Below are positions 1-29,246 of a DNA stretch of 44,815 bases, piece by piece (position 1 is the first letter of the stretch; each line of letters starts with the position of its first letter). The notes below the pieces were generated by a model. That model ran no database searches and was not told where the DNA came from. It was given only the letters and a program-made list of their open reading frames with translations. The stretch is from contig CAIZLN010000162.1 of NCBI GenBank assembly GCA_903933815.1, forward strand, positions 1-44,815. Reading direction: 5' to 3'. Source of the DNA: an uncultured Solirubrobacterales bacterium. GTDB lineage: Bacteria; Actinomycetota; Thermoleophilia; Solirubrobacterales; 70-9. Both the position numbers and the translations under genes were made by a program.

Positions 1-819
1 GGTCTCGGTAACTACGGCGTAACCAAGGTCTACCGGGCGAAGAACGTTCCGGAAGGTCTGGCGCAGCCGATCGTCGACGTGATGGCCAAGGTCATCACCG
101 ATAACGGCTACAACTACGCGCTGTTCGGCGGTGGCCTGCTCGGTTTCGAGATCGGTGCCGGACTCACGGCCCGCCTCGGTGCCGGTGTAACCATGGAAGT
201 CACCGCGGTCAAGGTGGTTGACGGCAAGCTCGTTTCCGAGCGTCCGATTCTGCAGGACTCGCAGATCGCCGACGTCGGCTATGTCAGTGAGCCGGGAATC
301 ATCATCGGACGACTCAACGCTTTCGACATCAAGGAGACAGGCGGCAGCGCCGAGGTCATTGATGTCGACATCGAGCTCTCCGAGTGGTCGACAAAGGCCG
401 AGATGGTCACCCGTGGCGAGCAGCGCGGCGCCGATGTGGACATCGAAGCAGCCGACGTGCTGATCGGTGGCGGTCGTGGACTCGGCTCTGCCGAGGGCTT
501 CGACGCCTGCGAGGAACTCGCCGGTGCCTTCGATAACGGCGCAGTTGCCGCTACCCGCGCGGTGGTTGACGCCGGCTGGTACCCCTACGCAGCCCAGATC
601 GGCCAGACCGGCAAGACGGTCGCGCCGAAGCTTTACCTGGCGGTAGGAGTTTCGGGTGCTATCCAGCACAAGGTCGGAATGATGAACTCCGAAACGATCG
701 TGGCGATCAACAAGGACGAGAACGCCCCGATCTTTGAGTTCTCCGATCTTGGCGTCGTCGGTGACCTGAACAAGATCATGCCCAAGCTGACCGAGGCCAT
801 CAAGGCCAAGCGGGGCTGA
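1..819 (+). CDS. etfA: Electron transfer flavoprotein alpha subunit (5' partial)
   Basis: The frame is open from base 1, so the N-terminus lies outside the window; 272 residues are visible, ending at TGA 817-819. The alpha subunit binds FAD and, with EtfB, carries electrons from acyl-CoA and other flavin dehydrogenases. The C-terminal half holds the family signature around LYLAVGVSGAIQH followed by KVGMMNSETIVAINKD, which forms the FAD-binding region, and the acidic stretch FEFSDLGVVGDL typical of the domain end. The upstream neighbour, outside the window, is probably etfB. The next gene downstream encodes the quinone oxidoreductase that accepts electrons from this ETF, so the pair forms a complete route to the membrane quinone pool. 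Identity is secure from the signature; assignment to the housekeeping rather than the FixB-type branch is an inference from the ETF-QO neighbour. Confidence 0.95.
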   Translation, partial: GLGNYGVTKVYRAKNVPEGLAQPIVDVMAKVITDNGYNYALFGGGLLGFEIGAGLTARLGAGVTMEVTAVKVVDGKLVSERPILQDSQIADVGYVSEPGIIIGRLNAFDIKETGGSAEVIDVDIELSEWSTKAEMVTRGEQRGADVDIEAADVLIGGGRGLGSAEGFDACEELAGAFDNGAVAATRAVVDAGWYPYAAQIGQTGKTVAPKLYLAVGVSGAIQHKVGMMNSETIVAINKDENAPIFEFSDLGVVGDLNKIMPKLTEAIKAKRG

Positions 820-930: not shown

Positions 931-2628
931 ATGCCTCCCGTAGCGCCCTCCGAGTTTCCACCTCCGTTTGATTCCGAGAGCGTCATCTCCCGGCCGACAG
1001 ACCCGGAAGACGAGCGCATTGAAGTAGGTGCCGCCATCGTCGGTGCCGGGCCAGCCGGCATGGCCTGCGCGGTCAAGATGCTCCAGCTGCTCGAGGACCG
1101 CCCCGAGCTGGCCGAAAAGCTTGGCGAGGTTCCCGTCGCCGTGATCGAGAAGGGCAAGGTCGTCGGCGCCCACGAGATGTCAGGCGCCAACATGCGTCCT
1201 TCGGCCATGGAAGAGCTTTTCCCCGACCTTCCGAAGTCCGAGTGGCCGGTTTACCGCGAGGTCACCAAGGACGCCGTCTACCTGCTGACCGAGAAGCAGG
1301 CGCTTCCGCTCAAGCCGATGCCGCCGAACTTCAAGAACCACGGCAATTACGTCACTTCCGTTTCCAAGCTGACCCGCTTCCTCGCAGAGAAGGCCGAGGA
1401 GATGGGTGCCTACATCCTGACCGAGACCGCCGCCGACAAGCTGCTGGTCGAAGATCAGATTGTGCGTGGAATCCGCTCTGGCGACAAGGGCCGGGGCAAG
1501 GAGGGCCAGGAACTCGGCAACTTCGAGCCCGGCTCTGACGTCATGGCCAAGGCAACTGTTCTCGCTGAAGGCACGATCGGTCACCTGACCTACGCCGCTC
1601 TGGATCACTTCGACATCAACGGACTCGACCCGCAGCGTTGGGAGCTCGGCGTCAAGGAGATCTGGGAGGTCGAGGAACCTCTTGACCGGGTCATCCACAC
1701 GATGGGCTGGCCGCTCCGGAAGGCCGCCAAGTACAAGGAGTTCGGCGGTTCTTTCATCTATCCGATGGAGGACAACAAGATCTGCATCGGCCTGGTGGTC
1801 GGTCTTGACTACACCGACGCCACCCTTTCGGTCCACGACGGCCTCCAGCAGCTCAAGACACACCCCTTCATCAAGAAGATCCTCAAGGGCGGCAAGCGGG
1901 TCGGCTGGGGAGCCAAGACGATTCCGGCCGGTGGTTACTGGTCGATGCCCAAGCGCCTCGCAGTTCCCGGAATGTGCATTGCCGGTGACAATGCCGGGAT
2001 GGTCAACGTCGCCGAGCTCAAGGGCGTTCACTACGCCATGCACGCCGGCATGTTCGCCGCGGAGGCAATCGTGGACGCGCTGGAGAAGGATTCGATTGAC
2101 TTCTCGGCTTACGACGAGAAGGTCCACAACTCGCTGATTGAGAAGGATCTCTACAAGGTCCGAAACGCGAGCCAGCCGTTCACCAAGGGCTTCTTCGTCG
2201 GTGGCGCACTCGCTTCGGCGATGACCGTCACCGGGGGTCACTTCCCCGGCGGTCACTGGAAAAATCACGATGATGCCACCTACAAGATGGAAATCGGCAA
2301 GGCTGCCGACAACTATCCGGCACCGGACGGCGAGCTGACCTTCGACAAGCTGTCGTCGGTGTTCCTGACCGGTAACGCCACTCGTGACGATGCCCCGAAC
2401 CATGTGCGCATCCAGACCGAGGTTCCGCGGGAGATCGCGCAGACGTGGGTTTCGATGTGCCCCGCCCAGGTCTACGAGATCCCGGAAGACCAGCTCGCCA
2501 GCAGTGCCGAGATCGTCGATGTCCACGTGACCGCTTCCAACTGCGTTCAGTGCGGCGCGATCACAGCCAAGGGCGGGAGGCTGACCCTTCCCGAAGGAGG
2601 AGACGGGCCGCTCTACACCGAGACCTGA
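931..2628 (+). CDS. Electron transfer flavoprotein-ubiquinone oxidoreductase
   Basis: This 565-residue protein matches the usual length of ETF-QO, the membrane-associated FAD and iron-sulfur enzyme that passes electrons from reduced ETF to quinone. The N-terminus has the dinucleotide-binding motif IVGAGPAGMACAV (about residues 37-50); the middle contains GGSFIYPMEDNKICIGLV and GDNAGMVNVAELKGVHYAM, typical of the FAD and quinone domains. The start ATG has a GAAAGGA ribosome site about 8 nt upstream. The C-terminal ferredoxin-like part is unusual: Cys510, Cys538 and Cys541 are present, but the position expected for the fourth cluster ligand (CxxCxxC) is Ile544, and the following loop is a few residues shorter than in textbook members. 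The family call is secure; the cluster state is uncertain. It lies directly after etfA and before a strong terminator. Confidence 0.93.
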   Translation: MPPVAPSEFPPPFDSESVISRPTDPEDERIEVGAAIVGAGPAGMACAVKMLQLLEDRPELAEKLGEVPVAVIEKGKVVGAHEMSGANMRPSAMEELFPDLPKSEWPVYREVTKDAVYLLTEKQALPLKPMPPNFKNHGNYVTSVSKLTRFLAEKAEEMGAYILTETAADKLLVEDQIVRGIRSGDKGRGKEGQELGNFEPGSDVMAKATVLAEGTIGHLTYAALDHFDINGLDPQRWELGVKEIWEVEEPLDRVIHTMGWPLRKAAKYKEFGGSFIYPMEDNKICIGLVVGLDYTDATLSVHDGLQQLKTHPFIKKILKGGKRVGWGAKTIPAGGYWSMPKRLAVPGMCIAGDNAGMVNVAELKGVHYAMHAGMFAAEAIVDALEKDSIDFSAYDEKVHNSLIEKDLYKVRNASQPFTKGFFVGGALASAMTVTGGHFPGGHWKNHDDATYKMEIGKAADNYPAPDGELTFDKLSSVFLTGNATRDDAPNHVRIQTEVPREIAQTWVSMCPAQVYEIPEDQLASSAEIVDVHVTASNCVQCGAITAKGGRLTLPEGGDGPLYTET

Positions 2629-3537: not shown

Positions 3538-4602
3538 ATGATCCAGAAGCTTGCTGAACAGATAGAGATGCGCTTCGCCGAACTCGAGCGCGACATGAGC
3601 GACCCCGAGGTCATCGCCGACCGGAACCGTTATGCCGAGGTTGGTCGGGAGTACCGCCAGATATCCCCGGCGCATGAGCTCGTACTCGAGTACCGGAAGC
3701 TGGGGGACGACCTTGAGGGGGCCCGTGAGCTGATCGAAGAAGAAGACTCGGATGAAGAGCTGCGCAGAGTGGTCGAGGATGCCCCGGCGAGGCTTGCCGA
3801 GCTGGAGGAGGAAATCCGGCTGGCGATGGTCGAGTCCGACCCCAGCGACGAAAAGAATGTGATCGTCGAGATAAGGGCTGGCGCGGGTGGCGACGAAGCT
3901 GCCATCTTTGCTGGAGATCTCTACAAGATGCTCACCCGGTACGCCGCCGAGCGTGGATTTGCCACCGACATGCTCTCGCATTCGGCCGCTGAACAGGGTG
4001 GGTTCAAGGAGGTGACCTTCGAGATTCGTGGCAATGGCGCCTACTCGGTGTTCAAGTACGAGGGTGGAACCCATCGGGTTCAGCGCGTCCCCGAGACCGA
4101 GTCTCAGGGTCGAATTCACACTTCGACTGCAACCGTCGCCGTGCTTCCGGAAGCCGAGGAGGTGGAAGTCCAAATCGATCAGAACGACCTGCAGATCGAT
4201 GTCTACCGGTCATCCGGGCCTGGCGGACAGTCAGTGAACACGACTGACTCCGCCGTGAGGATCACACACAGACCGACAGGGATAACGGTTTCGATGCAGG
4301 ATGAGAAGTCTCAGCTTCAAAACAGGGAAAAGGGGATGCGCGTACTGCGGGCGAGGATCCACGAGCGCCAGCTGGCCGAGCAGCAGGCGGCGATTGCCTC
4401 TGAACGCAAGGCCCAGGTGGGCACAGGGCAGCGCTCGGAGAAGATTCGAACTTACAACTACCCTCAGGGCCGGGTCACCGACCACAGAATCAAGTTGACA
4501 TCCCATGACCTGGACGCGGTGATGAACGGTGAGCTGGGTAACTTCACGGCGGCGCTCTCGGGCGAGGAAAAGCGCCAGCTGCTCGAGGCTCAGGCCGGCT
4601 GA
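3538..4602 (+). CDS. prfA: Peptide chain release factor 1
   Basis: The 354-residue protein is class I release factor RF1, which recognises UAA and UAG and triggers hydrolysis of peptidyl-tRNA. The GGQ catalytic motif is at residues 229-231 in the context SSGPGGQSVN. The stop-codon recognition motif is the RF1-type PxT (Pro185-Glu186-Thr187 in VPETESQGRIHTS), which separates it from RF2 encoded at 30631. The N-terminal 100 residues form the usual acidic helical domain. Length is normal. The next gene, four bases on, encodes the methyltransferase that modifies the GGQ glutamine, the standard pairing. A TAGGCT hexamer lies 9 nt before the ATG. Confidence 0.97.
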   Translation: MIQKLAEQIEMRFAELERDMSDPEVIADRNRYAEVGREYRQISPAHELVLEYRKLGDDLEGARELIEEEDSDEELRRVVEDAPARLAELEEEIRLAMVESDPSDEKNVIVEIRAGAGGDEAAIFAGDLYKMLTRYAAERGFATDMLSHSAAEQGGFKEVTFEIRGNGAYSVFKYEGGTHRVQRVPETESQGRIHTSTATVAVLPEAEEVEVQIDQNDLQIDVYRSSGPGGQSVNTTDSAVRITHRPTGITVSMQDEKSQLQNREKGMRVLRARIHERQLAEQQAAIASERKAQVGTGQRSEKIRTYNYPQGRVTDHRIKLTSHDLDAVMNGELGNFTAALSGEEKRQLLEAQAG

Positions 4603-4606
4603 GCTG

Positions 4607-5461
4607 ATGGCTTCGGCGGGGGCAGGGGGTGCTTCGGCGCGGGATGCCCTCAGTGCGGCCACAGACGCATTCTCGGCGGTCGGGATTGACACCCCGAGGA
4701 TCGATGCTGAAGTCCTTCTGGCGGGCATCACCGGTCGCAGCGCGGCTGATCTGGTCGCCAACCGGGAGGAGCAGATTTCCCCAGCGGAATCACGCAGTTT
4801 CTCGGAGGCCGTGCGGAGGCGGCTGCGGCGCGAGCCGGTCGCCTACATACTCGGCAGCAAGGGCTTTCGGCACATTGACCTGGCCGTGGATGGCAGGGTT
4901 CTCATACCCCGGCCGGAGACCGAGATGCTGGTCGAGTTCGCACTTCTGGAGGAGCCGGGGTCCGTGCTTGAGCTCGGTACCGGCTCCGGAGCCGTCGCGT
5001 TGGCTGTTGCCAGTGAGATACCCGGATGTGAGGTCACCGCCGGGGATGTTTCGACCGACGCTCTTGAAGTCGCCAGGTCCAACGCCGTCCGGCTCGGACT
5101 CGCCGACAGGGTCTGCTTCTTTCATGGAACGTGGCCGACCCCGGGCACCTTCGACCTGATAGTCGCAAACCTTCCATATGTTGCCCTTGGTGATGACCTG
5201 CCGCCGGACGTGCGGGACTGGGAGCCGCCCGGTGCGCTGTTTCCCGGCGAGACCGGACTCGAGTGCTTCGAGGAGGTCATCGCGGCCCTGCCCGGATCAG
5301 GTGTTGAAGCACCGGTGATCGCCCTCGAGGTCGGCCACGGACAGGGCGAGCAGGTTGCGGCGCTTGTGCGCGGAGCCGGATTCGGTGAGACGGGAATCCA
5401 TCCGGACCTCGCCGGGCTGGAGCGGATGGTCACGGGTCGCAGGCAGACAACTTCTCCCTGA
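4607..5461 (+). CDS. prmC: Release factor glutamine methyltransferase
   Basis: This 284-residue S-adenosylmethionine-dependent enzyme methylates the glutamine of the GGQ motif of RF1 and RF2. The N-terminal helical domain (about 1-90) includes RREPVAYILGSKGF; the catalytic domain has RPETEMLVE, then the SAM-binding loop LELGTGSGAVALAVA. The active-site tetrapeptide, normally NPPY, reads Asn188-Leu189-Pro190-Tyr191, a change at the second position that keeps the catalytic Asn and Tyr. I chose the ATG at 4607 because it starts 4 nt after the prfA stop; the frame is open further upstream only inside prfA. Position next to prfA and the domain order make the assignment firm. Confidence 0.93.
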   Translation: MASAGAGGASARDALSAATDAFSAVGIDTPRIDAEVLLAGITGRSAADLVANREEQISPAESRSFSEAVRRRLRREPVAYILGSKGFRHIDLAVDGRVLIPRPETEMLVEFALLEEPGSVLELGTGSGAVALAVASEIPGCEVTAGDVSTDALEVARSNAVRLGLADRVCFFHGTWPTPGTFDLIVANLPYVALGDDLPPDVRDWEPPGALFPGETGLECFEEVIAALPGSGVEAPVIALEVGHGQGEQVAALVRGAGFGETGIHPDLAGLERMVTGRRQTTSP

Positions 5462-5473
5462 CATGATTGCCCG

Positions 5474-6100
5474 GTGAAGGTTGTCACCACTGAACTGAGT
5501 AACGGAGATGCCGCCCGGCAGGCTCTCGAGAGCTGCATCAGCAAGGGTGGCGTCGCCCTGTTTCCTTCCGATGGCGTCTACGGACTGGCCTGCGATCCAC
5601 TGAACGAGAAGGCAGTCACCCGGATCCATGAGATCAAGGGGCGCGACGACGGCAAGCCATCCGCCGTCATGTATCTGTCTCCGCTTGCGATGCGGGAACT
5701 GGTCCGTGATCTCGGCCAGCGGGTCAGCGAGGCTTTTGCACGGCTCCTGCCCGGTCCGGTGACACTGATCGTCCCCAATCCGCGGCATCGGTATCCGCTT
5801 GCCTGTCGGCAGGATCCATCCCGGCTCGGGGTGAGGGTGATTGCGGGCCCGCTGGCAGGCGTGCGCTACCCGCTGTTTCAGACGAGTGCCAATCTGAGCG
5901 GGGAGCCGACGCCATCCAGTTTTTCCGGGGTAGTGCCCGAGGTACGCGAAGCGGTTGACCTGGCGATTGATGGTGGTCAACTGAACGGGTTGCCTTCGAC
6001 TGTCGTCGACCTGACCGAACTCGACGAGAACGGCATCTGGACCGTGCTCCGCGAGGGCGGCATGAGCCGCGGTGACCTGGTTGCCGTACTGGGGCCCTGA
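5474..6100 (+). CDS. tsaC: L-threonylcarbamoyladenylate synthase (Sua5/YciO/YrdC family)
   Basis: The 208-residue protein belongs to the Sua5/YrdC family, which makes threonylcarbamoyl-AMP from threonine, bicarbonate and ATP, the first step of t6A modification of ANN-decoding tRNAs. Visible family features are FPSDGVYGLACDP near the N-terminus, the nucleotide-binding KGRDDGKPSAVMYLS, LLPGPVTLIVP, and the late motif FQTSANLSGEP. Length fits the short, single-domain form without the extra Sua5 C-terminal domain. It starts with GTG 12 nt after the prmC stop; a CATGAT hexamer 6 nt before the GTG overlaps the end of prmC and could be a weak promoter. The prfA-prmC-tsaC order is conserved in actinobacteria. 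Confidence 0.92.
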   Translation: MKVVTTELSNGDAARQALESCISKGGVALFPSDGVYGLACDPLNEKAVTRIHEIKGRDDGKPSAVMYLSPLAMRELVRDLGQRVSEAFARLLPGPVTLIVPNPRHRYPLACRQDPSRLGVRVIAGPLAGVRYPLFQTSANLSGEPTPSSFSGVVPEVREAVDLAIDGGQLNGLPSTVVDLTELDENGIWTVLREGGMSRGDLVAVLGP

Positions 6101-6160
6101 GCGACAACCGGCGACAGGTCTCGAGCCCTCCCTCCGGAAGGCAGCGTCCCGATGCTCGGG

Positions 6161-6166
6161 TAATCT
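6161..6166 (+). promoter_or_regulatory. -10 element of rpiB, leaderless type
   Basis: TAATCT ends 7 nt before the GTG at 6174. This placement supports that GTG as the true start, because the longer open frame (from 6072) would put the promoter inside the gene. Confidence 0.6.
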
Positions 6167-6173
6167 TGCCCGC

Positions 6174-6620
6174 GTGAAGATTGCCATGGCCTCAGATCAC
6201 GCAGGATTCGAGCTAAAGGAAGCCGTCAGGCAGTTCCTTGAGGGCGACGGCTATGAAGTCGTGGATGTCGGCACGCACTCTTCGGAGTCGACCGATTACC
6301 CGTCCTTTGCCGCGAAAGCGTCGGAGCTTGTCGCTGCGGGTGATTGTGATCGCGGCATACTCGTCTGTGGATCCGGGAACGGCGTGGCGATAGTTGCCAA
6401 CAAGGTCGCCGGCATCCGGGCGGTGAATGCCCATGACCGTGACGAGGCGGAAATGTGCCGCCGTCACAACGATGCCAACGTGGTCACCCTTTCCGGCCAG
6501 CGTCTCGATGTGGAACAGGCCGCACCGATTGTCGGTGCCTTTCTTGAAACCGAGTTCGAAGGTGGCAGGCATGAGCGTCGCGTCAAAGCGATCTCCGAGG
6601 TAGAGCAGCAGGGTCTTTGA
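6174..6620 (+). CDS. rpiB: Ribose-5-phosphate isomerase B
   Basis: The 148-residue protein is an RpiB/LacAB-type sugar-phosphate isomerase that interconverts ribose 5-phosphate and ribulose 5-phosphate in the pentose phosphate pathway. The N-terminus KIAMASDHAGFELK carries the conserved Asp-His pair; the catalytic cysteine is Cys65 in ILVCGSGNG, followed by the phosphate-binding stretch ANKVAGIRA and by His98 in CRRHNDANV. The frame is open from 6072, but those 34 extra residues look non-homologous and overlap tsaC; the GTG at 6174 gives the normal RpiB N-terminus and sits 7 nt after a TAATCT hexamer. RpiB followed by glyA is common in this actinobacterial block. Confidence 0.95.
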   Translation: MKIAMASDHAGFELKEAVRQFLEGDGYEVVDVGTHSSESTDYPSFAAKASELVAAGDCDRGILVCGSGNGVAIVANKVAGIRAVNAHDRDEAEMCRRHNDANVVTLSGQRLDVEQAAPIVGAFLETEFEGGRHERRVKAISEVEQQGL

Positions 6621-6655
6621 CCAGGCCCCTCGTCTGATCTGACCACCGGTATTGC

Positions 6656-6661
6656 TAGGCT
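6656..6661 (+). promoter_or_regulatory. Possible -10 element of glyA
   Basis: TAGGCT lies in the 110-nt gap between rpiB and glyA. Unlike the leaderless promoters of this window it is 69 nt upstream of the ATG, which would give a leader of roughly 60 nt containing two small hairpins. No convincing -35 hexamer at 16-18 nt. Confidence 0.4.
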
Positions 6662-6678
6662 GACAGTCTGTTCACGTT

Positions 6679-6715
6679 CCGGTAATCCGGCTCCTCAGGT
6701 GTCGGACAAATCCGA
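6679..6715 (+). other. Tandem hairpins in the glyA leader
   Basis: Two short hairpins lie between the proposed promoter and the glyA start: CCGG-TAAT-CCGG (6679-6690) and TCGGA-CAAA-TCCGA (6702-6715), the second ending 15 nt before the ATG. They do not resemble a glycine, SAM or THF riboswitch as far as I can judge. They may affect translation initiation, or be chance. Confidence 0.3.
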
Positions 6716-6730
6716 AAGGCCCATCCACGA

Positions 6731-7999
6731 ATGAGCACCCTGTCCCAGAATCTCCTAGATGCCCCTCTGGCAGATGTCGACCCCGAGGTCGCTGCCGCAC
6801 TCGACGGCGAACTGGCCCGCCAGCGCGACACACTCGAGATGATCGCCTCCGAGAACTTTGTACCGCAGGCGGTGCTCGAAGCCACCGGCTCCGTGCTGAC
6901 CAACAAGTACGCAGAGGGTTACCCGGGCCGCCGCTATTACGGCGGCTGCGATCAGGTTGACATCGTCGAGACACTGGCCATCGAGCGTGCGAAGGAACTT
7001 TTCGGTGCTGAGCACGCCAACGTCCAGCCCCACTCTGGTGCCCAGGCCAACAACGCCGTCTACATGGCCCTGCTTGAGCCCGGGGATACGATCATGGGCC
7101 TCGCGCTTGACCACGGTGGTCATCTGAGCCACGGCATGAAGCTGAACATCTCAGGCAAGCTCTACAAGGTGGTTCCGTACCACGTCTCTCGTGAGGATCA
7201 CCGGATCGACATGGACGAGGTGGCGAGGCTCGCCGAGGAGCGCCGGCCCAACCTGATCATCGCCGGTGGCTCGGCATACCCGCGCCAGATCGACTTTGCG
7301 GCATTTCGTGAAATCGCCGACTCAGTGGATGCGAAACTGATGGTCGACATGGCCCACTTCTCTGGCCTCGTGGCCGCTGGTGAGCATCCCAATCCGGTGC
7401 CCTACGCAGACGTGGTGACCAGCACGGTCCATAAGACCCTGGGTGGGCCTCGCAGCGGGATCATTCTCTGCCGTGAGGAACTCAAGGCAGACATAAACCG
7501 GGCCGTTTTTCCGGGTCAGCAGGGTGGACCCCTGATGCACGTGATCGCAGCCAAGGCCGTCGCGCTCAAGATCGCACAGAGCGAGGAGTTCGCTGAGCGC
7601 CAGCGCCGCACAGTAGCCAACGCCAGAGCGCTCGGGGCAGGCCTGATCGAAGGTGGAATCGACATCGTCACCGGAGGGACAGACGTTCATCTGGTGCTGG
7701 TCGACCTCACCTCGACCGGACTGGACGGACAGACCGGCGAGGATCGGCTCGATCAGGTCGGGATCACGGTGAACCGCAACACCATCCCGTTCGACGAGCG
7801 TTCCCCGATGAACCCCTCGGGCCTCCGGATCGGCACGTCTGCGCTGACCACTCGGGGCTTTGAGCCCGAAGACATGACCGAGATCGCGGCGATTATCGCC
7901 GCCGCCCTCTCCGATGGTTTCGCGGATCAGCGAGAGTCGCTGATCGCCCGCAGCAGGGCCCTCCTGGATCGCTACCCGCTATACCCGGGCCTCGGTTGA
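6731..7999 (+). CDS. glyA: Serine hydroxymethyltransferase
   Basis: The 422-residue PLP enzyme converts serine and tetrahydrofolate to glycine and 5,10-methylene-THF, the main source of one-carbon units. Conserved stretches include [10 protein letters not shown] near the N-terminus, [17 protein letters not shown], the substrate-binding [13 protein letters not shown], and the PLP lysine Lys235 in [13 protein letters not shown]. The late motif [10 protein letters not shown] is also present. Length is that of bacterial SHMT. The ATG at 6731 gives an N-terminus of about 20 residues before the first conserved block. It sits between rpiB and a glycosyltransferase-like gene, as in several actinobacterial ATP-synthase loci. 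Confidence 0.97.
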
Positions 8000-8039
8000 G
8001 GCTTTTCCCGGGGCCGGATCTGCCGACCCGGTCAGGTTG

Positions 8040-9047
8040 ATGAAGGTCTGGTTCGACTGCACCGCGGCGGCGCATCCCCTCGTGTTGCGGCCTGTGATCG
8101 AGCGTTTTGCCGACGAGGGCGCCGAGGTGCTGGTGACGGCCCGCGAGTATGGCCAGACTGTCGGGCTGCTCGAACTGCTCGGTATCGAGCACATTGTTGT
8201 CGGCTCTCATGGAGGCGGCTCGAGAGTCGGCAAGCTGTTTGCTCTCGGTTCCCGCTCGGCCCGCCTGTCGCGGACCATCTGGCGGTTCAGACCAGACCTC
8301 GCGGTTGGTCACGGTTCCGTTGACCTGGCGCTGGTCTCCGCCGTGTTTCAGATCCCCTCGGCTCAGCTCCAGGACTACGAGTTCGCCGGCATGCAGCGCC
8401 AGCTCGCCTTCCGGATCGCCGATCGGGTTCTGGTGCCGGATTCGATCCCGGAGGACCGAATGGCCAAAGTCGGCGCCAAGGGCAGGAAGCTGGTCCGCTA
8501 TCCGGGTCTGAAGGAGGATTACTACCTCGCTGACTTCAGCCCGAAGCCGGCTGTCCTCGACGAACTGGGTCTCGATCAGCAACGGGTGCTGGTAGTGGTC
8601 CGGCCGCCACCCGAGACCTCTGAGTACCACGCAGACAACCCTCTGTACGAGGAGGTGCTGGACCGGCTGGCTGCATCTGAAGGGGTTACGGCAGTCGTGA
8701 TTCCCCGGACTGCGGGCCAGGCTGAGCGAGCCAAGGGGCGCGGCTCTTCAAATCTGGTGATTCCCGATCACGCCATTGATGCGCAGAGCCTGATCGCCTT
8801 CAGCGACCTGGTGGTGAGCGCCGGAGGCACCATGAACCGGGAGGCGGTCGCCCTCGGAACTCCGGTTTACACGACATTCGCCGGACGCATGGGAGGGGTC
8901 GATGAAGAGCTGATCGCCGAGGGCCGGCTGAAGGTCCTGCGAGACGCGGGCGAGTTCGAACTCGTCAAGCGGAGCGACGAGGCGGGGCCGCGTGACCCTC
9001 GCGACCCACAGGTCCTCGTCGACGGCATCCTCGAGGCACTTGACTGA
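8040..9047 (+). CDS. DUF354 family glycosyltransferase-like protein
   Basis: The 335-residue protein matches the DUF354 family, proteins with a GT-B-like fold whose activity is not established. It begins KVWFDCTAAAHPLVLRPVI, continues with a region on gene-access to HGSVDLALVSAVF, and has a nucleotide-sugar-donor-like C-terminal part with LIAFSDLVVSAGGTMNREAVALGTPVYTT, which resembles the donor-binding half of MurG-like and UDP-GlcNAc epimerase-like folds. I chose ATG 8040 over the TTG three bases earlier. No ribosome site is visible. Its neighbour encodes a membrane enzyme that loads a sugar phosphate onto the polyprenyl carrier, so a role in envelope glycan synthesis is plausible but inferred. 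Confidence 0.8.
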   Translation: MKVWFDCTAAAHPLVLRPVIERFADEGAEVLVTAREYGQTVGLLELLGIEHIVVGSHGGGSRVGKLFALGSRSARLSRTIWRFRPDLAVGHGSVDLALVSAVFQIPSAQLQDYEFAGMQRQLAFRIADRVLVPDSIPEDRMAKVGAKGRKLVRYPGLKEDYYLADFSPKPAVLDELGLDQQRVLVVVRPPPETSEYHADNPLYEEVLDRLAASEGVTAVVIPRTAGQAERAKGRGSSNLVIPDHAIDAQSLIAFSDLVVSAGGTMNREAVALGTPVYTTFAGRMGGVDEELIAEGRLKVLRDAGEFELVKRSDEAGPRDPRDPQVLVDGILEALD

Positions 9048-13036: not shown

Positions 13037-14668
13037 ATGCAGATCAAGCCAGACGAGATTGCCAGCATCCTGCGGCAGCGCATCGAGGGCATCGACCCCG
13101 GAAGTGCGGACCTGTCCGAGGTCGGCACCGTACTCTCGATCGCCGACGGAATCGCCCGCATCCACGGTCTCGACAACTGCATGTCGCTCGAGATGCTCGA
13201 CCTTCCCCATGGGGTGACGGGCCTCGCCCTGAACCTCGAGCAGGACAACGTAGGCGCCGTGCTGTTCGGCGAGTGGGAAAAGATCATCGAAGGCGACACC
13301 GTCAAGCGGACCAAGCGGTTGCTGGAGATCCCGGTAGGAGAGGAGTTCCTCGGTCGCATGGTCGACCCGCTCGGCCGCCCGTTGGATGGCAAGGGCGACA
13401 TCAATACCGGCAAGACGCGTCCAGCCGAGTTCAAGGCTCCGGGAGTCATCAGCCGGCAGCCGGTACGTGAGCCGATGCAGACGGGTATCAAGTCGATCGA
13501 CGGCATGATCCCGATTGGCCGCGGTCAGCGCGAGCTGATTATCGGCGACCGCCAGACCGGTAAGACCACGGTGGGCATCGACTCGATCATCAACAACAAG
13601 GACACCGGCGTGATTTCGGTGTATGTCGCGATCGGCCAGCGGATGGCGACCGTGGTCCAGGTGCGTGAGGTGCTCGAGGCAGCCGGCGCGATGGAGAACA
13701 CGATCATCGTTGCCGCGCCTGCTGACGAGGCCGCGCCGATCAAGTACATCGCCCCCTACGCCGGTACGGCGATGGCCGAGTACTTCCTCTACGACGGCAA
13801 GGCAGCCCTTTGCGTCTACGACGACCTCACCAAGCACGCTTACGCGTATCGTCAGATGTCCCTGCTGCTGAGGCGCCCGCCAGGACGCGAGGCTTATCCC
13901 GGCGACGTCTTCTATCTTCACTCGAGGCTGCTTGAGCGGGCCGTGAAGCTGAGCGATGAAGAGGGCGGGGGTTCGCTCACCGCTCTGCCAATCATCGAGA
14001 CGCAGGCAAACGACGTGTCGGCTTACATCCCGACCAACGTGATTTCGATCACCGACGGGCAGATTTTCCTCGAGTCCGACCTTTTCAACTCGGGCATCCG
14101 TCCGGCCATCAACGTCGGCATCTCGGTTTCCCGGGTCGGCGGTGACGCCCAGACCAAGGCGATGAAGAAGGTCGCCGGCAAGATGAAGGGTGAGCTCTCG
14201 CAGTACCGTGACCTCGCCGCCTTCGCCCAGTTCGGCTCGGAGCTTGACTCCGAGACCCAGAAAACCCTTGCCCGTGGTGAGCGGCTGGTCGAACTGCTCA
14301 AGCAGAATGAGCGGAACGCGCTCTCGGTCGCCGATCAGGTGGCTTCGATTTACGCCGGTACAGGCGGCTTCCTCGACCGGATCGCGACTGAACGCGTTCA
14401 GGAGTTCCTGGAAGGGCTGCTTATCCGGCTGCACACCGAGAACGCGGATCTGTGTGAACGGATCAACGACACCGGCCAGTTCCCCGAAGAGGACGAGAAG
14501 GAGCTTTCGGCGGTGATCAGTGGCTGGGTGGACGACTTCGGACCCGACTTCGACGACGAGGGTGAGCCGCTCGCCAAGGGTGAGTCAGACCGGGTCGAAG
14601 CTGCCCGGGCCGAGGCCCCGCGAAACGACGAGGAGAGCACCGGGGAAGAGGTTGCGGCCGCCGTCTAG
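13037..14668 (+). CDS. atpA: F1Fo ATP synthase subunit alpha
   Basis: The 543-residue non-catalytic nucleotide-binding subunit shows the P-loop GDRQTGKTT (residues 170-178, Lys176), the [10 protein letters not shown] lead-in and the AIL-family signature region [21 protein letters not shown] good ribosome site, AAGGAGG, lies about 11 nt upstream. The protein is longer than the roughly 500-residue E. coli subunit because of an acidic, probably disordered C-terminal extension from about residue 498 ([13 protein letters not shown] to the end). Extended alpha C-termini are known in mycobacteria, where they suppress ATP hydrolysis; a similar effect here is inference. Confidence 0.97.
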
Positions 14669-14701
14669 GCGCCCCGCTCCGCCCTCGAGGAAACCAGCCC
14701 C

Positions 14702-15622
14702 ATGGCCAACCGCAAAGAAGTCGCCACACAGATCGCCAGCGTCAAGAACATCCGCCAGATCACGCGCGCGATGGAGGCGGTGGCTGCCGCAAGGCTTCGC
14801 AAGGCGGAGAACCGGATCGCGCACCTGCGCCCCTACGCTCAGGCCACGCGGAACCTTACCCGCCGCGCGGCTGCCGAAGCAGGAAACATCTCGCACCTGG
14901 CAATCCTTGATGAGCGCAAAGACGTAAACCGTCTGGCGATCCTGCTCATCACAGGAGACCGTGGTCTGGCCGGTGCCTTCAACGCGAACATCATCCGTGA
15001 GGGACTCCACCTGCGCGATCAGGCGATCGAAAAGGGTCAGGAGGTCATTTTCTACGTGGTCGGCCGTCGTGGCGATGGCGCAATGACTTTTCGAAAGCAG
15101 AATATCGGCGAATCCTGGACCGGATTCACAGATCGCCCGGCCTTCACTGACGCAAGAGAGATCGGCGACGAGCTGACCTCGGCTTACATCGATGGAAGGA
15201 TCGACCGGATCGAAGTCGTTTACAACCGTTACGTTTCTCCTCTGACGCAGTACGTCCAGCAGATGACGCTGCTGCCGGTTCAGCAGGCCGAAGTGGTCGG
15301 CCAGGGCTCTGAAGAGGAAAACGGAGTCGAAGAAGAAGGTGAACTTGCCGCTGCTCACCATCACTCTCTGTGGGATTACGAACCGGAGCCGGATGAACTG
15401 CTTGCGCAGCTCATTCCTGATTACATCAATACTTCGCTTTACCGCACCCTGCTCGACTCGGCAGCATCCGAGCTTGGTGCCCGAATGACGGCGATGCGCA
15501 GCGCCGCCGACAACGCCGAAACGATGATCGACGACCTCACCCTTGAGATGAACCGGGTCAGGCAGGCGGAGATCACGCAGGAAATCCTGGAAGTCGTCGG
15601 AGGCGCGGAAGCGCTCGGCTAG
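14702..15622 (+). CDS. atpG: F1Fo ATP synthase subunit gamma
   Basis: The 306-residue central rotor shaft shows the N-terminal helix QIASVKNIRQITRAMEAVAAARLRKAE, the GDRGLAGAFN motif and the C-terminal helix SELGARMTAMRSAADNAETMI. Between about residues 193 and 222 lies a low-complexity acidic insertion (EEENGVEEEGE) ending in a His triplet (AAAHHHSLWDYEPEP), placed just before the conserved YEPEPDELL segment. A gamma loop in a comparable part of the subunit has regulatory roles in mycobacteria and chloroplasts, but this insertion differs in sequence. Start ATG is 33 nt after atpA. Confidence 0.96.
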   Translation: MANRKEVATQIASVKNIRQITRAMEAVAAARLRKAENRIAHLRPYAQATRNLTRRAAAEAGNISHLAILDERKDVNRLAILLITGDRGLAGAFNANIIREGLHLRDQAIEKGQEVIFYVVGRRGDGAMTFRKQNIGESWTGFTDRPAFTDAREIGDELTSAYIDGRIDRIEVVYNRYVSPLTQYVQQMTLLPVQQAEVVGQGSEEENGVEEEGELAAAHHHSLWDYEPEPDELLAQLIPDYINTSLYRTLLDSAASELGARMTAMRSAADNAETMIDDLTLEMNRVRQAEITQEILEVVGGAEALG

Positions 15623-26378: not shown

Positions 26379-29246
26379 ATGGCCAAACAGTTAATCGACC
26401 GCGCACTCAGGCTTGGCGAGGGGCGCAAGTTCAAGACCTACCAGAAGCGGGTCGACTCGATCAACCGGATCGAGCCCGAGATGGAGATTCTTGAGGACCA
26501 CGAGCTTCGTGAAGAAGCTGACGCGCTGCGCGAGCGTGCGAAGGGCGGAGAGTCCTTTGACGACCTGCTTCCGGAATCGTTTGCGCTGACCAGGGAAGCC
26601 GCCCGCCGGACCCTCGGTGAGCGCCACTACGACGTTCAGCTGATTGGTGGCATGGTCGTGCACGACGGCGCGATCGCCGAGATGAAGACCGGTGAGGGCA
26701 AGACCCTGACCAGCACCCTGGCGATCGTGCTCAACACGCTTGCTGGCGGCAGCGTCCATGTGGTCACGGTCAACGACTACCTCTCGAAGCGGGACGCACT
26801 CTGGATGAAGCCGATTTACGACATGCTCGGCTGTTCCGTGGGGTGGATCCAGGAGGATGACCAGCCGGGTGACCGAAGGGCGAAGTACGCCTGCGACATC
26901 ACGTACGGCACCAACTCCGAGTTCGGTTTCGACTATCTGCGCGACAACATGGCCAGCTCGATCGAAAACAAGGTCCAGCGCGCCCACGACTTCGCGATCG
27001 TCGACGAAGTAGACAACATCCTGATTGATGAGGCCCGGACCCCGCTGATCATCTCCGGTGCCCCCGAGCAGGCGGCCCAGACCTATTACACCTTCGCCCG
27101 CCTTGCCAAGCAGCTCGAGGGGGTTCCCGCCAAGACCAAACTGAAGTCTCAAGGGGAGACCCGCGACACCTCCGATGCGGAGTACGACTACGAGTACGAC
27201 GAGAAGCACAAGACCGTGGCTCCGACCGAGCGCGGCGTCGAGAATGCGGAAAAGTTCCTTGGCGTAGACAACCTCTACCTTGCCGAAAACGGAAACATGG
27301 TCAACCACCTGATCCAGTCGCTCAAGGCCGAGTCCCTTTATCGCAGGGACAAGGACTACGCCGTGGTCGACGGCGAAGTGATGATCATCGACGAGTTCAC
27401 CGGCCGGATTCTGGAAGGGCGACGTTGGTCGGAGGGCCTCCATCAGGCGGTTGAGGCCAAGGAGGGGGTGGCTATCCGCGAGGAGAACCAGACCCTCGCC
27501 ACGATCACCCTCCAGAACTACTTCCGGCTCTACGAGAAGCTTTCGGGAATGACCGGTACGGCGTTGACCGAGGCGACCGAGTTCATGAAGATCTACAAGG
27601 TTCCGGTGGTCGAGGTTCCGACGAACAAGCCGACCATGCGCGATGACCAGAACGACCAGATCTTCAAGACCCGCGAGGGCAAGTGGCAGGCGGTCATCGA
27701 GGAACTGGTCGAGCGCCACAAGACCGGCCAGCCGATCCTGGTCGGCACCGTGTCGGTCGAGACCTCGGAGATGATCTCCTCCGCCCTCAAGCGGGAGGGC
27801 ATCGAGCACGTCGTGCTCAACGCCAAACCTGAATACGCCGAGCGGGAAGGCGAGACAATCGCCCAGGCGGGTCGTAAGGGTTCAGTCACGATCGCGACCA
27901 ACATGGCTGGCCGTGGCGTCGACATCAAACTCGGTGGCGATCCTGAAGGCATGGCCCACCCGATCGTTGCCAAGCGAGGACTGAACCCCGAAGACGAGGG
28001 CTACCGTGAGGCCGTAGACGAACTCGCGGCCGACCTCCGGCCCCAGTGCAAGGCCGAGGCCGAGCAGGTCCGGGAACTGGGTGGGCTTTTCATCTGTGGC
28101 ACCGAGCGGCATGAGTCCCGCCGGATCGACAACCAGCTTCGCGGCCGCGCCGGCCGCCAGGGCGACCCGGGCGCATCCCGCTTCTTCCTCTCCGCTGAAG
28201 ACGACGTGATCCGACTTTTCGCCGGTGACCGCATCTACCGCATCCTTGACCGGCTCGGACCGGTTGACGACGAAGGCAAGGAGCTGCCACTCGAGGCGAA
28301 GATGCTGACCAAGACCGTTGAGAATGCCCAGAAGAAGGTCGAGGAGCAGAACTTCCTGATCCGCAAGCGGGTCCTCGAATACGACGATGTCATGAACGAG
28401 CAGCGCCGCGTGGTCTACAAGTACCGCGGCGAGATCCTCGAGGGCCGCGACATGTCGGAAATCGCTCGCGAGGAGCTGGACGGCGTGATCGAACGTCTGG
28501 TCGACGAATACACACCCGGCGACATCATCGAAGAGTGGGACCTTCCGGAGCTGGATACCCAGCTTCACCTGATCTGGCCCTGCTCCGTGGACGTCGCCGG
28601 AATGCCCGCGCATTCCGTGGATCGGGAGGGCCTGAAGGTCGAGCTGATCGAAGATGCCCAGAAGGCCTACGAAGAGCGTGAGAGCCAGCTCGGCGAAGAG
28701 GTAATGCGCTACATCGAGCGCACCATCCTTCTCCAGGTAATCGATAACCGCTGGCGGGAGCACCTCTACGACATGGATTATCTGCGCGAGGGAATCCACC
28801 TCCGCGGTTTCGCCCAGATCGACCCTCTGGTTGCCTACAAGAACGAGGGCTACTCGATGTTCTCGGATCTGATGCACGCAATCTGGGAAGAGTTCAGCAA
28901 GCTGATCTTCAACGTTGAGGTTCAGCTCGAGCCGAATGAGGTTGAACGAGCATTCGCCGCAGTGGCCGAGGGCAACGTCGAAAATCTCGACTACTCCGGC
29001 GGTACGCTCGAGGGCCAGCCTTCGGCACTGGCCGAGGTCGCCGCAGGCAGTACGCCCGGCCCGGCCGAGACCGGTGGCATCCCGGGAGTCGTTCCGGGTG
29101 GCATGGCGAGTATCGGCGGCCAGCCGGGCAGCATCCTCGGTGGAGCGGCTGAGACCAAGGTCAATACCGAGCGCGAAAGCATCGGCCGGAACGACCCCTG
29201 CTGGTGTGGATCGGGCAAGAAGTTCAAGAAGTGTCACGGGGCCTGA
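26379..29246 (+). CDS. secA: Preprotein translocase ATPase SecA
   Basis: The 955-residue motor drives proteins through SecYEG with ATP. The Walker A motif is GEGKT at residues 105-109 in EMKTGEGKTLTS; the DEVD box, the preprotein crosslinking domain, MAGRGVDIKLGG and QLRGRAGRQGDPG of the second ATPase domain, and the helical wing/scaffold region follow in order. After a Gly/Pro-rich linker (about 885-930) the C-terminus ends in the zinc-binding SEC-C motif DPCWCGSGKKFKKCHG, so this is the full-length housekeeping SecA1 rather than the shorter SecA2. The mRNA looks leaderless. The next gene starts inside its last 16 nt. Confidence 0.98.
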   Translation: MAKQLIDRALRLGEGRKFKTYQKRVDSINRIEPEMEILEDHELREEADALRERAKGGESFDDLLPESFALTREAARRTLGERHYDVQLIGGMVVHDGAIAEMKTGEGKTLTSTLAIVLNTLAGGSVHVVTVNDYLSKRDALWMKPIYDMLGCSVGWIQEDDQPGDRRAKYACDITYGTNSEFGFDYLRDNMASSIENKVQRAHDFAIVDEVDNILIDEARTPLIISGAPEQAAQTYYTFARLAKQLEGVPAKTKLKSQGETRDTSDAEYDYEYDEKHKTVAPTERGVENAEKFLGVDNLYLAENGNMVNHLIQSLKAESLYRRDKDYAVVDGEVMIIDEFTGRILEGRRWSEGLHQAVEAKEGVAIREENQTLATITLQNYFRLYEKLSGMTGTALTEATEFMKIYKVPVVEVPTNKPTMRDDQNDQIFKTREGKWQAVIEELVERHKTGQPILVGTVSVETSEMISSALKREGIEHVVLNAKPEYAEREGETIAQAGRKGSVTIATNMAGRGVDIKLGGDPEGMAHPIVAKRGLNPEDEGYREAVDELAADLRPQCKAEAEQVRELGGLFICGTERHESRRIDNQLRGRAGRQGDPGASRFFLSAEDDVIRLFAGDRIYRILDRLGPVDDEGKELPLEAKMLTKTVENAQKKVEEQNFLIRKRVLEYDDVMNEQRRVVYKYRGEILEGRDMSEIAREELDGVIERLVDEYTPGDIIEEWDLPELDTQLHLIWPCSVDVAGMPAHSVDREGLKVELIEDAQKAYEERESQLGEEVMRYIERTILLQVIDNRWREHLYDMDYLREGIHLRGFAQIDPLVAYKNEGYSMFSDLMHAIWEEFSKLIFNVEVQLEPNEVERAFAAVAEGNVENLDYSGGTLEGQPSALAEVAAGSTPGPAETGGIPGVVPGGMASIGGQPGSILGGAAETKVNTERESIGRNDPCWCGSGKKFKKCHGA

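What the first reader, a model, noticed from the sequence alone, without database searches (positions are those of the whole stretch)
2458..2628. ETF-QO lacks one of the four cluster cysteines
Well-studied ETF-QO proteins bind a [4Fe-4S] cluster by one Cys followed about 25 residues later by CxxCxxC. Here Cys510, Cys538 and Cys541 are present but the fourth position is Ile544, and the next loop is shorter. The rest of the protein is ordinary and the reading frame is intact, so it does not look like a decayed gene. The enzyme may carry a [3Fe-4S] cluster, use another ligand, or work with flavin alone, which would change the electron path from ETF to quinone (probably menaquinone here).
Basis: partly seen in the sequence, partly recalled or inferred. 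Interest (0 to 1): 0.55.

Follow-up and report, generated by a model that had tools for sequence, protein, structure and literature searches.

The report
Three-cysteine ETF-quinone oxidoreductase subfamily
This bacterial enzyme, which should pass electrons from fatty-acid breakdown to the respiratory chain, belongs to an old and strictly conserved subfamily that keeps only three of the four cysteines its known relatives use to hold an iron-sulfur cluster, so it probably carries a different cluster rather than being a broken gene.

Summary
ORF 931-2628 (+) encodes a full-length ETF-quinone oxidoreductase with C510, C538 and C541 and with Ile544 where the fourth cluster cysteine sits. The loop after it is four residues shorter. 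The change is fixed across the window's class: the three-Cys motif occurs in 235 of 300 genomes and the four-Cys motif in 6 of 300, all in one family, with no genome holding both. The three-Cys form also occurs in two further phylum-level groups. On a tree built without the cluster region it is one side of a branch (100/100). In 86 diverse members the three cysteines are invariant, and the CxxCGAI segment is the most conserved 26-residue stretch of the protein. Its gene usually follows etfA. The AlphaFold model matches porcine ETF-QO over its whole length. I read it as a working ETF:menaquinone oxidoreductase whose three cysteines still bind an Fe-S cluster, most likely [3Fe-4S]. A [4Fe-4S] cluster with a non-Cys or water ligand is the main rival. 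Flavin alone is unlikely, because nothing would then keep the cysteines. The cluster type is inferred; no tool here can detect iron. New variant of a known kind.

The parts
931..2628 (+). ETF-quinone oxidoreductase gene, 565 aa, three-cysteine (CxxCGAI) subfamily
   Evidence: ORF; Pfam ETFQO_UQ-bd and Fer4_ETF_QO; porcine ETF-QO 2gmh E 2.7e-88; model aligned to 2gmh Z 45.5 over 526 residues
2458..2460 (+). Cys510 codon, first cluster ligand (CPAQVYE)
   Evidence: Cys in 86 of 86 aligned members
2539..2616 (+). Residues 537-562, NCVQCGAITAKGGRLTLPEGGDGPLY, cluster loop and C-terminal tail
   Evidence: most conserved of all 540 windows of 26 residues, mean 0.936 against 0.69 overall
2542..2544 (+). 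Cys538 codon, cluster ligand
   Evidence: 86 of 86
2551..2553 (+). Cys541 codon, cluster ligand
   Evidence: 86 of 86
2557..2559 (+). Ala543 codon, at the place of Thr (pig T558) of the four-Cys form
   Evidence: Ala in 86 of 86; Thr in 11 of 11 four-Cys proteins
2560..2562 (+). Ile544 codon, at the place of the fourth cluster Cys
   Evidence: Ile 85, Thr 1 of 86; Cys in 11 of 11 four-Cys proteins
2374..2388 (+). Residues 482-486 (N482, R485, D486 conserved), subfamily-specific
   Evidence: N482 and R485 86 of 86, D486 84 of 86; four-Cys proteins have T/A, E/D and E/H there
79..819 (+). etfA (ETF alpha), cut at its 5' end by the start of the window; likely electron donor subunit
   Evidence: Pfam ETF_alpha and ETF; etfA directly upstream in 92 of 102 subfamily loci with at least 900 nt upstream

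Best explanation
The gene encodes a working ETF:menaquinone oxidoreductase of a distinct ETF-QO subfamily. Reduced ETF, whose alpha subunit is encoded just upstream, gives electrons to it; they pass to the enzyme's FAD and on to menaquinone in the membrane. The C-terminal ferredoxin-like domain still holds an Fe-S cluster, but with three cysteines (C510, C538, C541): most likely a [3Fe-4S] cluster, with Ile544 filling the corner where the fourth iron and its Cys would sit, and the following loop shortened by four residues to match. Shown: sequence, predicted fold, subfamily-wide conservation, gene neighbourhood, MenD. Inferred: that a cluster is bound, that it is [3Fe-4S], the order of electron transfer, and menaquinone as acceptor.
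For: Three Cys 86 of 86 while no other Cys column exceeds 58 of 86, and the site is the most conserved window. Ile at the missing place 85 of 86. Fixed class-wide: three-Cys motif in 235 of 300 genomes, four-Cys motif in 6 of 300. One branch on a tree without the cluster columns. Fold as porcine ETF-QO, Z 45.5, model 13..565, mean pLDDT 94. etfA upstream in 92 of 102. No gained Cys or His. Precedent: FrdB holds [3Fe-4S] by three Cys, two from a CxxCxxC-like loop and one from elsewhere (C204, C210, C158; PMC1459171, passages). MenD at 387 bits.
Against: No experiment and no metal-aware model. In FrdB (C204, C210) the middle place of the loop is the one without a Cys ligand; here it is the third, so the precedent is not exact. 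Three Cys can also hold a [4Fe-4S] cluster with an open iron, or a zinc ion. D486 (84 of 86) and R485 (86 of 86) are conserved and their distance to the site was not measured, since no coordinates were available. In 10 of 102 loci EtfA was not found next to the gene, nor in L089, the locus from another phylum-level group with 5 kb upstream.
Confidence: 0.5

Rival explanations
1. The site holds a [4Fe-4S] cluster with three Cys and a fourth ligand that is not Cys: water or hydroxide, Thr/Asn/Ser545, Asp486 or Arg485.
For: Position 545 is T, N or S in 86 of 86. R485 86 of 86 and D486 84 of 86 are conserved in the subfamily. From recall: aconitase and radical SAM enzymes hold such clusters, and biotin synthase has an Arg ligand on its [2Fe-2S] cluster.
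Against: No newly gained Cys or His; D486 is Glu in 10 of 11 four-Cys proteins, so an acid there is not new. 545 varies among T, N and S. An aliphatic residue fixed at the missing place suits an empty corner better (inference).
Confidence: 0.25
2. No cluster; electrons go from ETF straight to FAD and quinone, and the cysteines serve structure, a disulfide or a zinc site.
For: One ligand is missing, and the Thr of the four-Cys form is Ala. FixC is a related flavoprotein without this domain: 7koe FixC aligns only to model residues 28..434.
Against: The whole ferredoxin-like domain is kept and its cluster loop is the most conserved window. In studied ETF-QO the electrons from ETF are described as entering through the cluster (PMC12542620, passage).
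Confidence: 0.15
3. Decayed or mis-assembled gene.
For: None found beyond the missing Cys.
Against: Intact frame; 235 of 300 class genomes carry the same motif; conservation is highest at the site.
Confidence: 0.01

Closest known systems
Four-Cys ETF-QO (porcine ETF-QO, PDB 2gmh; Pfam PF05187 and PF21162)
   Same: FAD and quinone-binding domains, C-terminal ferredoxin-like domain, full-length fold (Z 45.5, 36% identity in the structural alignment), CPAxVYE and NCx(H/Q)C parts
   Different: Fourth Cys is Ile, preceding Thr is Ala, Lys is Gly, loop to PEGG four residues shorter, His before the second loop Cys mostly Gln
FixC/FixX (PDB 7koe_C)
   Same: Shared flavoprotein fold over model residues 28..434; both act with ETF-like subunits
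   Different: FixX is a separate ferredoxin with two [4Fe-4S] motifs (PMC6085437, passage); here one fused domain with three Cys
Mycobacterial EtfD
   Same: Proposed ETF:menaquinone oxidoreductase in actinobacteria; reported to carry a linear [3Fe-4S] cluster (PMC13083937, passages)
   Different: That paper states EtfD is not homologous to mammalian ETF-QO; no CCG domain appears among this protein's Pfam matches
[3Fe-4S] site of fumarate reductase FrdB
   Same: Three Cys, two from a CxxCxxC-like loop and one from elsewhere (PMC1459171, passages)
   Different: No homology claimed; there the middle place of the loop lacks a Cys ligand, here the last

Membership tests
ETF-QO (PF05187 / PF21162) | FAD-binding and quinone-binding domains | tested here: met
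   ETFQO_UQ-bd 93.3 bits (cut-off 27.7), DAO 34 bits (cut-off 27.9); 2gmh alignment over residues 31-563
ETF-QO (PF05187 / PF21162) | C-terminal Fer4_ETF_QO domain | tested here: met
   48 bits, cut-off 24; lower than the 131-142 bits of the four-Cys proteins of the same class
ETF-QO (PF05187 / PF21162) | Four cluster cysteines (Cys plus CxxCxxC) | tested here: not met
   Ile544 for the last Cys. It is therefore filed as a distinct subfamily, not as a [4Fe-4S] ETF-QO of the known kind
ETF-QO (PF05187 / PF21162) | Whole fold of ETF-QO | tested here: met
   Predicted model: Z 45.5, rmsd 2.2, 526 aligned; TM 0.86/0.84
ETF-QO (PF05187 / PF21162) | Electron transfer from ETF to quinone | not testable with these tools
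   Only the neighbourhood: etfA upstream
[3Fe-4S] protein | Three conserved Cys ligands with no Cys at the fourth place | tested here: met
   86 of 86 for each Cys; Ile or Thr at the fourth place
[3Fe-4S] protein | Three-iron cluster by EPR, iron content or structure | not testable with these tools
   Needs protein
EtfD | CCG domains (with transmembrane helices) | tested here: not met
   No CCG domain among the Pfam matches; best fold match is ETF-QO. Transmembrane helices were not tested
FixC | Flavoprotein without an own ferredoxin-like domain, working with a separate FixX | tested here: not met
   Fused C-terminal domain; FixC NCBIfam model 95.8 bits against a cut-off of 610

The most novel reading that the evidence does not exclude
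A whole ancient branch of ETF-quinone oxidoreductases, in at least three phylum-level groups, has exchanged the ordinary four-Cys [4Fe-4S] site for a three-cysteine cluster ([3Fe-4S], or [4Fe-4S] with an unusual ligand), together with the Thr-to-Ala change and the shorter loop, as a fixed re-tuning of the step from ETF to menaquinone.
Probability: 0.5. Interest if true: 0.6.

Novelty: new variant of a known kind. Interest (0 to 1): 0.5.

Why it matters
In the studied enzymes the cluster is described as the place where electrons from ETF enter (PMC12542620, passage), and all 11 four-Cys proteins compared here keep the same CxxCxxC loop. A natural subfamily with three cysteines gives a ready test of what the cluster does, and of how ETF-QO is adapted to menaquinone instead of ubiquinone. 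It also means that automatic annotation of these genes as [4Fe-4S] ETF-ubiquinone oxidoreductases may name the wrong cofactor and quinone.

Tried and rejected
Unique to one assembly or decay: rejected. A replacement Cys or His: searched by comparing 86 three-Cys with 11 four-Cys proteins; none gained; only N482, R485, D486 and Q540 are polar and subfamily-specific in the C-terminal part. Measuring distances from the model to candidate ligands: not possible, no coordinates are handed out. Menaquinone by the futalosine route: PF02621 not found in the genome; MenD found. The 'Acidobacteriota' title of L098: the phylum of its genome (G440) returned the same class sequences again, so it is not counted as another phylum. 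The titles 'Burkholderiales' (L109) and 'Acidimicrobiia' (L065) were not checked and are not counted either. Structure and mutant papers on ETF-QO that I remembered were not held under the identifiers I tried. Fold search: chains other than ETF-QO match only the flavin part of the model in the rows listed, which says nothing about the C-terminal domain.

Results that weaken the reading: EtfA was not found near the gene in 10 of 102 loci and in L089, whose neighbours are a thioredoxin-like protein, a transglycosylase, a chorismate-binding enzyme and an aminotransferase. One member (L074) has Thr instead of Ile and no EtfA found in 5 kb upstream; a second copy with Thr occurs in genome G540. 59 of 300 class genomes show neither motif; some of them (families f5, f84 and part of f6) have only short or weak PF05187 matches. 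The exact DNA patterns miss any genome whose motif varies.

Full report
What is there. The window's ORF 931-2628 (+) is an intact 565-residue ETF-quinone oxidoreductase, with the quinone-binding and Fer4_ETF_QO domains of that family and porcine ETF-QO as the closest solved protein (E 2.7e-88). C510, C538 and C541 are present and position 544 is Ile. In the alignment with pig the Ile falls on the last Cys of CxxCxxC, Ala543 on the Thr before it, and the loop to PEGG is four residues shorter.

Is it general? The family search found the protein in 44 of 50 genomes, and the scan of named genomes kept 80 loci, most of them titled Solirubrobacterales, Thermoleophilia or Actinobacteria/Actinomycetota. 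I read the C-terminal motif in every locus held at that stage: of 220 loci, 203 have GAI after CxxC, 1 has GAT, 9 have KTC (the four-Cys form) and 7 show no motif in the part read; collapsed to unique proteins, 149, 1, 6 and 7 (motifs listed). With exact DNA patterns, 235 of 300 genomes of the class carry the three-Cys motif and 6 of the same 300 the four-Cys motif; the six lie in one family (f6) and none of them has the three-Cys motif. Among 396 genomes spread over the phylum, the listed matches that reach the C-terminal domain are all in the window's class (only up to three candidates per genome were scored there and the list is cut at its weak end).

Beyond the class. The genome behind L103 (record titled Calditrichaeota J042) belongs to a different phylum-level group with 36 genomes searched: 4 have the domain, all four three-Cys, and three of these keep the His of the four-Cys form (NC[VI]HCGAI). 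The genome behind L089 (bacterium HR37) belongs to another group with 53 genomes searched: 11 have the domain, all three-Cys. The tool does not name these groups. On a tree of 44 proteins from which the cluster region was cut, the 36 three-Cys rows are one side of a branch with support 100/100, and the 12 rows from outside the class form their own supported set (99/96) among them. The rows were chosen by hand, and the root was put on proteobacterial proteins.

Is the site in use? In 86 three-Cys proteins (the other 85 are 53-80% identical to the window's) each of the three cysteines is found in 86 of 86. The window's other cysteines are kept in 58, 16 and 6 of 86, and no other column has Cys in more than 58. 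Residues 537-562 form the most conserved of all 540 windows of that length (mean 0.936, whole protein 0.69). A relic would not look like this. The alignment was built from 86 of the 99 three-Cys representatives.

What replaces the fourth ligand? Against 11 four-Cys proteins the subfamily-specific conserved residues in the C-terminal part are N482, R485, D486, W506, M509, Q540, G542, A543, I544, A546, G548, G549 and L551. There is no gained Cys or His. D486 stands where 10 of 11 four-Cys proteins have Glu. Position 545 is T, N or S. So no obvious substitute exists, although water, D486, R485 or position 545 cannot be excluded without distances.

Structure. AlphaFold2 with the subfamily alignment gives mean pLDDT 94 and pTM 0.94. 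The model aligns with porcine ETF-QO over residues 13..565, Z 45.5, rmsd 2.2 A, 526 residues (Foldseek TM 0.86/0.84). FixC (7koe) matches only residues 28..434.

Context. etfA lies just upstream in the window (79-819, cut by the window's edge). In 92 of 102 unique subfamily loci with at least 900 nt upstream an EtfA match lies directly upstream on the same strand; in 10 it was not found. The four-Cys loci L137 and L138 of the same class have EtfA in the same place, and in L137 Pfam finds two ETF-domain genes there, the second with the ETF_alpha domain, so the two forms look interchangeable in position. The genome has MenD (387 bits, cut-off 244) and not the futalosine enzyme family PF02621; Solirubrobacter species are reported to have MK-7(H4) (PMC10722151, passages). 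The acceptor is therefore probably menaquinone.

How it probably works. ETF gives electrons to the enzyme; they pass through cluster and FAD to menaquinone. I think the three cysteines hold a [3Fe-4S] cluster, with Ile544 in the vacant corner. The nearest documented parallel is the [3Fe-4S] site of fumarate reductase, held by two cysteines of a CxxCxxC-like loop and one from elsewhere (PMC1459171, passages); the vacant place differs (middle there, last here). From recall, not from a call: in a bacterial four-Cys ETF-QO, replacing the Thr that here is always Ala lowered the cluster's potential, which would suit menaquinone. Shares: [3Fe-4S] about 0.5, [4Fe-4S] with another ligand about 0.25, no Fe-S cluster about 0.15, something else the rest.

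Novelty. Seven full-text searches on this subject in the open-licence PubMed Central library gave listings in which I saw no paper on a three-cysteine ETF-QO; three further searches were on side questions. I read passages of five papers. Most subscription papers are not held, so this is weak evidence of absence. I rate it a new variant of a known kind.

Noticed in passing
L137, L139, L164 (four-Cys ETF-QO of family f6): These four-Cys proteins carry three further cysteines shortly before CPAxVY (C-x3-C-x7-C, then x3 to the cluster Cys), absent at those places from the three plasmid-borne proteins in the alignment; they may hold a second metal site, as in FixX-like ferredoxins.
   Followed up: no
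L074; genome G540 C28:16995-17018: A rarer copy has Thr instead of Ile at the vacant place (NCVQCGAT). For L074 no EtfA was found within 5 kb upstream; G540 holds both an Ile and a Thr copy.
   Followed up: partly
L134, L135, L141-L144, L148, L149, L152: Three-Cys ETF-QO genes without a detectable EtfA directly upstream, so the operon was probably split in some families.
   Followed up: partly
window 3538-9047: Downstream lie ordinary housekeeping genes: release factor 1, PrmC, Sua5/YrdC, RpiB-type isomerase, serine hydroxymethyltransferase, a DUF354 protein.
   Followed up: yes
window 13037-15622 and 26379-29246: ATP synthase alpha and gamma subunits, and SecA further on; nothing unusual.
   Followed up: no
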